Shown piece by piece: positions 50,695 to 52,180 of a DNA stretch of 64,000 nucleotides. Numbering within the stretch: the stretch's first letter is position 1; each line of letters opens with the position of its first letter. The position numbers and the translations under genes were made by a program. The DNA is from Clostridia bacterium. GTDB taxonomy: Bacteria > Bacillota > Clostridia > Christensenellales > DTU072. The stretch lies in assembly GCA_017403145.1 (NCBI GenBank), contig JAFQOO010000001.1:62001-126000 (forward strand). The letters run 5' to 3'. Under the pieces are notes generated by a model, which did no database searches, was not told where the DNA came from, and saw nothing but the letters and a program-made list of their open reading frames with translations.

Positions 50695-50722
50695 AAAAGG
50701 TTCGCCACAAGGCGAACCTTTT
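50695..50722. terminator. Bidirectional terminator between rho and the reverse transcriptase
   Basis: AAAAGGTTCGCC, loop ACAA, GGCGAACCTTTT: a 12-bp perfect stem with A and T flanks. It serves rho (plus) and the reverse transcriptase (minus, stop at 50727). The 95 bases between rho and this stem (50600-50694) are very A-rich with no other feature seen. Confidence 0.93.
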
Positions 50723-50726
50723 AGTT

Positions 50727-51941
50727 TTAAAAATCGAAATTTCCGGTTTTTTTGAATTTGTAAAATGAGTTTACCAAACTTTTATATCCAAGCTTCTTAA
50801 TGTCCTCGTATCTAAGATTATAATTAGCTTTGGTATGCTTGCCCGTTGAAATATACCTTATGCAAGAAATCATATATTCGTCGAGAGCTTGTAAACTTTC
50901 CGCAGTAGTGATTGTTGGGAAATACCATCTGCACCAGGTTAAATCGTTTGGGTTAGGGTTATCATAAAATTTCTTATTAAAATGGCGTATATAAGCTCGA
51001 ATAGTTCCCTTCACGTTTGCGTTGTTTCTATTGCGCCAGCGAAGGATAGCCCTTGCTTTTCGTCGCATTTTGCCCCTTATTTTCTCTAAAGCAACGTTGG
51101 AAACGTCAACGCGATTACCATCTATATTAAAACCTAAGAAGTCCCATTTTTCGCCGGGGAGAGTACGAACCTCTTTTTTAGGATTAACGGTCAATTTCTT
51201 TTGAGATAGGAACCATTTTATTTTTTCTTCGTATTCTTTGATGTCCTTTTCGGTTTTGGCAAACACAATAATATCGTCGGAGTATCTTGCGTAGGAAATA
51301 CCGCGTAGGGCAAACCATTTATCCAAATCCGTTAAATAAAGATTTGCCAAAAATCCAGAAATAGGAACTCCTGCCATAATGCCTTTTTTACAAAATGTTT
51401 GTTTTCCATTTTTTAAACAATAGGGCTCTAATAATATAGATTTAATAAAGTTAAGTAGCTCTATATCCTCTTCAAAGGTTTCTTCAAGAAGCTTTATTAT
51501 GCTATCCGTATCAACTGAATTAAAGTAGTCGTGGATATCTACCTTATAGGAATATAAGCTTGATTTTTTTATAGAAGAGAGTAGGGTGCCAATAGCGGTT
51601 TTAACGCTTATATTCTTGCGAAATGAATATAGGTTGTCAGAAAATAGGTGGTCGTAATCGTGTAAAAGGTGGGCAAGAAGCTTCAATACCATATTTTCTT
51701 CGTGATTGAATATAAAAACAGTTCTTTTTTTGCCTGTACGTCTTTTGTTTATTTCAACCATTTTAGGAAGGGCAAAAGACTCGTTGCTAAGTATCTTTTC
51801 AACTATAGGAAGGTATTTTTTATTATCTATAAAGTCGCGGAATTCTTTTTCTTCACGTGAAGAAAAATGTCCGCTTTCTATTTTTGATTGCAAAAATTGC
51901 TCCCAATAGTTTTCATCTTTAAGTTTATGCAATAAGCTCAT
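50727..51941 (-). CDS. Stand-alone reverse transcriptase of uncertain class
   Basis: A 404-residue RNA-directed DNA polymerase. Palm motifs are complete: catalytic Asp135 in YKVDIHDYFNSVD, YSFRKNISVKTAI (105-117), GIMAGVPISGFLANLYL (187-203, where the usual PQG is MAG), the active-site YSDD (220-223), KLTVNPKKE and FLGFNI (268-273). A C-terminal thumb-like part of about 125 residues follows; there is no endonuclease, maturase-X or second enzyme domain. AGGAG lies six bases before the ATG. The gene is AT-richer than its neighbours, is flanked by terminators, and is preceded by a structured RNA. It could belong to a retron, a DRT-type defence system or an undescribed RT group; a group II intron or DGR is unlikely. 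Confidence 0.9.
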   Translation of the reverse strand: MSLLHKLKDENYWEQFLQSKIESGHFSSREEKEFRDFIDNKKYLPIVEKILSNESFALPKMVEINKRRTGKKRTVFIFNHEENMVLKLLAHLLHDYDHLFSDNLYSFRKNISVKTAIGTLLSSIKKSSLYSYKVDIHDYFNSVDTDSIIKLLEETFEEDIELLNFIKSILLEPYCLKNGKQTFCKKGIMAGVPISGFLANLYLTDLDKWFALRGISYARYSDDIIVFAKTEKDIKEYEEKIKWFLSQKKLTVNPKKEVRTLPGEKWDFLGFNIDGNRVDVSNVALEKIRGKMRRKARAILRWRNRNNANVKGTIRAYIRHFNKKFYDNPNPNDLTWCRWYFPTITTAESLQALDEYMISCIRYISTGKHTKANYNLRYEDIKKLGYKSLVNSFYKFKKTGNFDF

Positions 51942-51959
51942 TTGTCGCTCCTAAAAATT

Positions 51960-51985
51960 GGGTACGGACTTTTAAGCCCGCACCC
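51960..51985 (-). terminator. Terminator- or attenuator-like hairpin just before the reverse transcriptase start
   Basis: On the minus strand GGGTGCGGGCT, loop TAAA, AGTCCGTACCC: 11 pairs including two G-U, followed by AATTTTT and then the AGGAG of the RT gene. It could end a short RNA and let only some polymerases read into the RT gene. Confidence 0.6.
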
Positions 51986-52150
51986 ATATAATAGCTGTCA
52001 AGAAGATTAAACAAACATTAATCTTGTTATCTTCAATACCTTGAAAGATAACAAGTTGAATGTTTTACAAGGTTGCACACGATAAAGCTGTCTGCAAAAC
52101 TATAAAATAATACCGTGCTTTACCCATCGCAGACGCTAAGCATTGACAGC
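51960..52150 (-). ncRNA. Structured RNA upstream of the reverse transcriptase (retron-like msr/msd candidate)
   Basis: Read on the minus strand. P1: GCTGTCAA (52150-52143) pairs with TTGACAGC (52001-51994), 8 bp, enclosing the rest. Just inside P1 is CTTAGC (52140-52135), the AGC resembling the branch-guanosine context of retron msr. P2: GTCTGC (52134-52129) with GCAGAC (52095-52090). P3, the longest: AAACATT (52065-52059) with AATGTTT (52019-52013), then CTTGTTATCTT (52055-52045) with AAGATAACAAG (52033-52023), then CAA with TTG around GGTA. The P3 loop segment CAAGGT (52043-52038) is complementary to ACCTTG (52073-52068), so a pseudoknot is possible. P4 follows (51985-51960). No convincing open frame is seen here. 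The pairing is seen in the bases; the function is inferred. Confidence 0.65.
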
Positions 52151-52180
52151 ATTTTATCAATTATTAGCGCTATAAAACAA
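52151..52180 (-). promoter_or_regulatory. Possible promoter of the RNA/reverse transcriptase cassette
   Basis: On the minus strand TAAAAT (52156-52151) with TG at the extended -10, 18 bases after a poor -35 (TTGTTT, 52180-52175) that overlaps the fba terminator tail. The palindrome TAGCGCTA (52172-52165) sits between them. Start would fall inside the 5' arm of P1, which argues for caution. Confidence 0.35.

What the first reader, a model, noticed from the sequence alone, without database searches (positions are those of the whole stretch)
50722..52178. Self-contained reverse transcriptase plus structured RNA cassette between rho and fba
A lone RT gene and about 190 bases of folded upstream RNA are bounded by terminators on both sides. 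The RT has YSDD at its active site and MAG where most bacterial RTs have PQG, and no maturase, endonuclease or adjacent effector gene. Known bacterial RT systems with an upstream RNA include retrons and the DRT2/DRT9-type defence systems. The RT does not show the retron NAxxH or VTG signatures, so this could be a poorly described class in which RT and RNA alone form the system. The AT-rich coding sequence suggests acquisition separate from the neighbours.
Basis: partly seen in the sequence, partly recalled or inferred. Interest (0 to 1): 0.9.

Follow-up and report, generated by a model that had tools for sequence, protein, structure and literature searches.

The report
UG26 reverse transcriptase with partner RNA
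This bacterial genome carries a small inserted cassette, a reverse transcriptase and a separate knotted partner RNA, that belongs to a catalogued but apparently experimentally unstudied branch of anti-virus reverse transcriptases, so the find is real but is a new member of a known kind.

Summary
The RT (50727-51941, minus strand, 404 aa) matches PADLOC RT_UG26 over its full length (541 bits; next family 123), and the upstream RNA matches Rfam RT-5 above its cut-off. It is a DRT-type enzyme, not a retron, group II intron or DGR. A covariance model built without the window finds the RNA at E=3e-19. Across 67 RNAs the structure covaries strongly, including a pseudoknot (354 of 357 standard pairs). 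The RNA is a partner, not a cis leader: RT and RNA are inherited together even where 4-10 kb separate them (25 of 25 genomes checked), and 1 of 37 RT-less genomes has the RNA. Sister genomes have an empty fba-rho junction, so the cassette is probably an insertion. A third gene, RTasCOG2852, lies directly upstream in 35 of 93 loci, including the window's nearest relatives, but is missing here. Most likely mechanism (inferred): an RT-RNA particle making protein-primed, RNA-templated cDNA for phage defence, as in DRT9/DRT10. The template site is undecided: DRT10-like direct repeats are absent from the P2 bulge and only modestly enriched after stem P3 (post hoc p about 0.001). New member of a known kind.

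The parts
50727..51941 (-). UG26-type reverse transcriptase, 404 aa (catalytic D135, D222, D223; MAG 189-191; YSDD 220-223; C-terminal Y378, Y394)
   Evidence: PADLOC RT_UG26 E=3.2e-163, 541 bits over 1-398; catalytic Asp invariant in 93 loci; AlphaFold2 mean pLDDT 91
51994..52150 (-). partner RNA of the RT-5 family, closing stem to closing stem
   Evidence: Rfam RF03026 at 52048-52138; model R1 at 52027-52158, E=3e-19; covariation in relatives
52143..52150 (-). P0 closing stem, 5' strand GCUGUCAA
   Evidence: pairs with 51994-52001 UUGACAGC in the MFE fold; P0 covaries in relatives
51994..52001 (-). P0 closing stem, 3' strand UUGACAGC
52128..52136 (-). pseudoknot 5' strand GCGUCUGCG
   Evidence: pairs with the hairpin loop at 52090-52099; 354 of 357 standard pairs over 51 RNAs, 5 of 7 positions with changes on both sides
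52090..52099 (-). pseudoknot 3' strand, loop of hairpin P2b (UUUUGCAGAC)
52102..52110 (-). single-stranded bulge between P2 and P2b (UUAUUUUAU), hypervariable and A/U-rich in relatives; candidate template 1
   Evidence: position in alignment; no direct-repeat enrichment; variable even within one genus
52013..52065 (-). stem-loop P3, longer in the window than in relatives
   Evidence: MFE fold; P3 pairs covary in relatives
52002..52012 (-). single-stranded segment after stem-loop P3 (GUUUAAUCUUC) with the conserved UU[UC]AA motif; candidate template 2
   Evidence: motif in 62 of 67 RNAs; direct-repeat (A-B-A') enrichment in relatives, post hoc p about 0.001
51959..51986 (-). terminator-like hairpin between RNA and RT, followed by ATTTTTA
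   Evidence: terminator scan; a similar hairpin is at the same place in L002-L005
52179..52204 (-). terminator of fba, upstream boundary of the cassette
   Evidence: terminator scan; the same kind of hairpin follows fba in sister genomes L128 and L129
50699..50718 (-). hairpin with T run after the RT gene, downstream boundary
   Evidence: sequence

Best explanation
The cassette is a UG26-type (DRT-like) system reduced to its RT and its RT-5 RNA. Shown here by sequence analysis: the RNA is a conserved, pseudoknotted molecule in its own right, it is inherited together with the RT even where other genes separate the two, and the cassette sits where sister genomes have an empty fba-rho junction. 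Inferred: the RNA folds around the RT, a single-stranded segment of it serves as a short template, DNA synthesis is primed by a C-terminal tyrosine of the RT (Y378 or Y394), and the resulting cDNA acts against phage infection, as in DRT9 and DRT10. The window's nearest relatives also carry an upstream RTasCOG2852 protein; this copy has probably lost it, so it may be a minimal or partly disabled system.
For: RT_UG26 full length, 541 bits, and a match of all 20 aligned relatives. The next UG groups by score are UG27, UG17 (= DRT10), UG4 and DRT9, and among solved structures the DRT9 complexes rank just behind a group II RT. RT-5 RNA in the window, next to the RT in 18 of 20 first relatives, in 67 of 93 loci within the stretch fetched. 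Whole structure: 91% of cells paired against 72% in shuffles, 474 double-sided changes against 144; pseudoknot. Co-inherited without linkage: 25 of 25 RT genomes with exactly one RNA, 1 of 37 RT-less genomes. C-terminal Tyr378 in 93/93, Tyr394 in 87/92; C-terminal Tyr or Ser priming is shown for DRT9 (PMC12483538) and DRT10 (PMC12632851). Empty site in sister genomes.
Against: No experiment exists here on binding, cDNA or defence. In family f209 the system is near-universal (78 of 115 genomes, 49 of 62 good ones), unlike a typical patchy defence gene. No close relative was found in the viral, phage or plasmid collections. Conserved C-terminal tyrosines may be structural. The template position is undecided.
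Confidence: 0.6

Rival explanations
1. The RNA is a cis-acting leader that controls transcription or translation of the RT gene, not a template or partner.
For: In the window and most relatives the RNA lies directly upstream, with a terminator-like hairpin between it and the RT, as an attenuator would.
Against: In 24 g413 genomes the RNA is about 4-10 kb from the RT, with opposite-strand genes between, or on another contig (three genomes), yet is always kept as one copy; 36 of 37 RT-less genomes lack it.
Confidence: 0.05
2. Telomerase-like, DRT10-type mechanism: the segment after stem-loop P3 carries an A-B-A' template and the RT makes long tandem repeats. (A special case of the best explanation.)
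For: Repeats such as GAUUU-AAU-GAUUU, CUGUU-AAAUU-CUGUU and UGUUUC-AAAGC-UGUUUC in relatives; summed repeat length 100 against 88.4 (sd 3.35) in cross-sequence shuffles of 28 non-redundant segments, p=0.0013, while control windows along the RNA gave z from -2.8 to 1.9. The position, after a stable stem-loop, is the one described for DRT10 (PMC12632851).
Against: The segment was chosen after the P2 bulge failed the same kind of test. The second UU also pairs in P0, so its conservation has another cause. In many RNAs, the window included, the repeat is only 2-3 nt, near chance. Twenty-five further g413 RNAs were almost identical there and gave no independent test.
Confidence: 0.3
3. A host-domesticated RT-RNA with a non-defence role, at least in family f209 where it is near-core.
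For: Near-universal single copy in f209; the RNA is found in 75 of 188 genomes of that order, all in two genera of that family; no phage or plasmid carriage.
Against: The nearest RTs by profile are defence RTs and the associated protein is in PADLOC's RT-associated set; outside f209 the distribution is sparse (15 of 391 genomes of the class, six of them f209 and one the window's own).
Confidence: 0.15
4. A decayed cassette: RT and RNA without the lost COG2852 partner are inactive remnants.
For: RTasCOG2852 is upstream in the window's nearest relatives L002, L003 and L004 and absent from the window genome.
Against: The RT is intact with all invariant residues, and the RNA keeps its pseudoknot in a compensated form, GUCUGC/GCAGAC. 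Many loci without the partner next to the RNA have intact RTs.
Confidence: 0.15

Closest known systems
UG26 reverse transcriptases (PADLOC RT_UG26, a DRT group)
   Same: Full-length profile match, 541 bits; all 20 aligned relatives match it too.
   Different: No difference found in the RT; the window copy lacks the RTasCOG2852 gene found next to many UG26 RTs.
Rfam RT-5 RNA (RF03026)
   Same: Above gathering score in the window and in 18 of the 20 relatives checked, upstream of a UG26 RT.
   Different: The Rfam consensus printed by cmscan shows P1, P2 and P2b; the closing stem P0, stem P3 and the pseudoknot are added here. Whether the Rfam entry itself notes a pseudoknot was not checked.
DRT10 (UG17): RT, ncRNA and SLATT protein (PMC12632851)
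   Same: UG17 is among the nearest PADLOC groups; a separate structured RNA; a possible A-B-A' template after a stem-loop; conserved C-terminal hydroxyl residues.
   Different: The associated protein is RTasCOG2852, not SLATT, and is absent here. The repeat signal is much weaker than the 85-95% of RNAs reported for DRT10.
DRT9 (UG28): RT and ncRNA (PMC12483538)
   Same: RT with an RNA partner, among the best structural matches, conserved C-terminal tyrosines.
   Different: DRT9 has a universally conserved poly-U template; no such tract is universal here. The RT is shorter (404 against about 490-500 aa).
Retrons and group II intron RTs
   Same: Shared RT fold; group II RTs are the best Foldseek matches.
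   Different: TIGR04416 and retron St85 models are far below their cut-offs; no maturase or endonuclease gene, no retron signatures.

Membership tests
UG26 RT (DRT group) | full-length match to the UG26 profile, well above all other RT profiles | tested here: met
   541 bits over profile 1-397 of 398; next 122.6 bits
UG26 RT (DRT group) | intact catalytic aspartates | tested here: met
   D135, D222, D223 in 93 of 93
UG26 RT (DRT group) | RTasCOG2852 protein beside the RT (frequent, not universal, so not strictly defining) | tested here: not met
   35 of 93 loci have it; none in the window genome at E<=0.01
RT-5 RNA (RF03026) | score above the curated gathering threshold | tested here: met
   53.9 against 45.7 bits
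DRT anti-phage system | protects cells against phage | not testable with these tools
   no experiment possible; no paper in the held library was found that studies UG26 RTs
Class 2 DRT mechanism (DRT2/DRT9/DRT10) | separate, co-inherited structured RNA bound by the RT | tested here: inconclusive
   co-inheritance and structure shown; binding not testable
DRT10 | A-B-A' template after a stable stem-loop | tested here: inconclusive
   absent in the P2 bulge; modest enrichment after P3, post hoc
DRT10 | SLATT-domain partner protein | tested here: not met
   no such gene beside the window RT; the protein beside relatives is RTasCOG2852
DRT9 | universally conserved poly-U template | tested here: not met
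   bulge and P3-P0 segments carry no universal U tract
Retron | retron RT signatures and profile score | tested here: not met
   retron_St85 84 bits, cut-off 235; no NAxxH or VTG
Group II intron RT | TIGR04416 score above cut-off | tested here: not met
   128 bits, cut-off 300

The most novel reading that the evidence does not exclude
UG26 with RT-5 RNA is a second bacterial system with telomerase-like repeat addition: a pseudoknotted RNA with an A-B-A' template after a stem-loop, an RT that primes on its own C-terminal tyrosine, a COG2852-type partner instead of a SLATT protein, and near-core status in one family that points to a lasting cellular role.
Probability: 0.25. Interest if true: 0.75.

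Novelty: new member of a known kind. Interest (0 to 1): 0.45.

Why it matters
It ties two catalogue entries together, the UG26 RT group and the RNA family RT-5, and shows by covariation and by co-inheritance at a distance that the RNA is a trans-acting partner. That gives a concrete, testable RT-RNA pair, with named template and priming candidates, in a DRT group for which no experiment was found in the held literature, and a case (family f209) where such a system is almost a core gene.

Tried and rejected
P2 bulge as an A-B-A' template: direct repeats not enriched over shuffles (10 against 9.9 expected with repeats of 3 or more; 63 bulges, sum 132 against 132.4). Position-coupling test in the bulge: best of 107 tests p=0.002, not significant after correction. 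Cis-leader reading: rejected by separated but co-retained RNA and RT. Accessory protein as a new family: Pfam and NCBIfam gave nothing above cut-off, but PADLOC knows it as RTasCOG2852, so that claim was dropped; its predicted fold has no significant PDB match, a restriction endonuclease being the most suggestive weak one. Viral, phage and plasmid carriage: no close relative. Group II intron or retron: rejected.

Full report
What is there. A 404-codon reverse transcriptase lies at 51941..50727 on the minus strand, with fba upstream and rho downstream, convergent. Directly upstream is a structured RNA. Rfam's RT-5 model matches 52138..52048 at 53.9 bits, above its gathering score of 45.7. The stretch 52158..51955 folds with a z-score of -6.4.

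What the RT is. PADLOC's RT_UG26 profile matches residues 1-398 with 541 bits; the next family scores 123. Group II and retron models stay far below their cut-offs. The predicted structure is confident (mean pLDDT 91). Its best structural matches are group II RTs, then DRT9 complexes; the match to group II RTs reflects the shared fold and is not a membership test. In 93 loci (window included) the catalytic aspartates, MAG and Y378 are invariant, and Y394 is present in 87 of 92. I did not build a tree with all RT classes; placement rests on the profile scores.

What the RNA is. Relatives were gathered from GTDB genomes. Model R1 was built from 17 relatives without the window. It finds the window RNA at E=3e-19, with no other convincing hit in 64 kb, and 67 of 93 loci carry the RNA in the stretch fetched. 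On that alignment the whole structure has 91.0% standard pairs against 71.9% in shuffles, and 474 double-sided changes against 144. Part of that fit comes from alignment to the model itself. The pseudoknot was not in the model, so its count leans less on the fit: 354 of 357 cells form standard pairs over 51 RNAs, five of seven positions show changes on both sides, and 104 of 119 Watson-Crick pairs over 17 distinct combinations exceed all 5000 shuffles, whose maximum is 92. The window itself has the compensated form GUCUGC/GCAGAC.

Partner, not leader. In many g413 genomes the RNA and RT have drifted apart. Whole-genome searches of 24 of them, mostly those whose RNA was missing from the fetched stretch, and of the window genome each found exactly one RNA. 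In these 24 it lies about 4-10 kb upstream of the RT, with opposite-strand genes such as a glycosidase-like gene between, or on another contig (three genomes). Of 37 genomes without an RT hit, one has the RNA (G975). The three loci left without a detected RNA (L107, L109, L111) belong to the most distant RT clade. RT and RNA are therefore kept together without being neighbours, which a cis-regulatory leader would not need.

Insertion. None of 12 same-genus genomes has an RT hit at E<=1e-60 or the RNA. In two close sisters, with fba 98-99% identical, the fba terminator runs directly into convergent rho, and several others share the fba-rho order. With its lower G+C, the cassette is most simply a gain in this lineage. 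I did not look systematically for terminal repeats; no recombinase gene adjoins.

The third component. A small protein is encoded directly upstream of the RNA, always on the RT strand, in 35 of 93 loci across several families. Pfam and NCBIfam give no match above cut-off, but PADLOC matches 14 of 17 members as RTasCOG2852, best E 1.5e-61. Its model has a confident C-terminal alpha/beta domain without a significant PDB match. The window's closest RT relatives L002, L003 and L004 have it and the window genome does not, so loss is likely.

How it may work. By analogy with DRT9 and DRT10 (PMC12483538, PMC12632851), the RT would bind the RNA, copy a short single-stranded segment and attach the DNA to its own C-terminal tyrosine. 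This is inference. I first tested the variable bulge between P2 and P2b as a DRT10-like template and found no repeat enrichment. I then noticed direct repeats in the conserved segment after P3 and tested that: p=0.0013 for summed repeat length on 28 non-redundant segments, against control windows with z between -2.8 and 1.9. Because the segment was chosen after seeing the data, and further g413 RNAs were nearly identical there, this is a lead and not a result. In the window the repeat is only UU...UU.

Distribution. The system is sparse in the class (15 of 391) but present in 78 of 115 genomes of family f209, and the RNA is confined to two genera of that family within its order. This is unusual for a defence system and is left open.

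Judgement. The novelty is lower than it thought, because both halves are catalogued families; what is added is their pairing, the pseudoknot, the evidence for action in trans and the missing partner. That RT-5 was described by Weinberg and colleagues in 2017, and that the UG groups were set out by Mestre and colleagues, is from my own knowledge; those papers were not read here, and the RT-5/UG26 pairing may already be recorded there.

Noticed in passing
f209 genomes: UG26 RT is near-universal in one family (78 of 115 genomes; 49 of 62 good ones) but sparse elsewhere, unlike a typical defence gene.
   Followed up: partly
P2 bulge in g413 RNAs, L180-L204: The bulge is hypervariable between species of one genus while the P3-P0 segment is nearly constant; its A/U-rich make-up and length of about 8-10 nt are kept.
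   Followed up: partly
g569 loci such as L062, L073, L080, L124: In this genus an extra hairpin appears to sit in the bulge, leaving only about 4-5 unpaired bases.
   Followed up: no
L033, L141, L144, L145, L147, L149 just upstream of the RT: A gene for a roughly 794-aa HD-GYP-like protein ends at the base before the RT start, suggesting translational coupling.
   Followed up: no
L003, L004, L025 around the RT: Neighbouring genes encode SPFH/zinc-ribbon and TIR/TPR proteins; in L004 the COG2852-type domain is fused to a TIR/TPR protein.
   Followed up: no
G975:C3:18306-18436: RT-5 RNA in a genome without a UG26 RT hit: an assembly gap or an orphan RNA.
   Followed up: no
L017 (G825), L040 (G1003), L054 (G1019) and a few others: A few relatives show one in-frame stop in the matched RT stretch, so some copies may be broken or end early.
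   Followed up: no
window 52013-52065: Stem-loop P3 is much longer in the window RNA than in its relatives, by an inner hairpin of about 11 pairs (CUUGUUAUCUU...AAGAUAACAAG).
   Followed up: no
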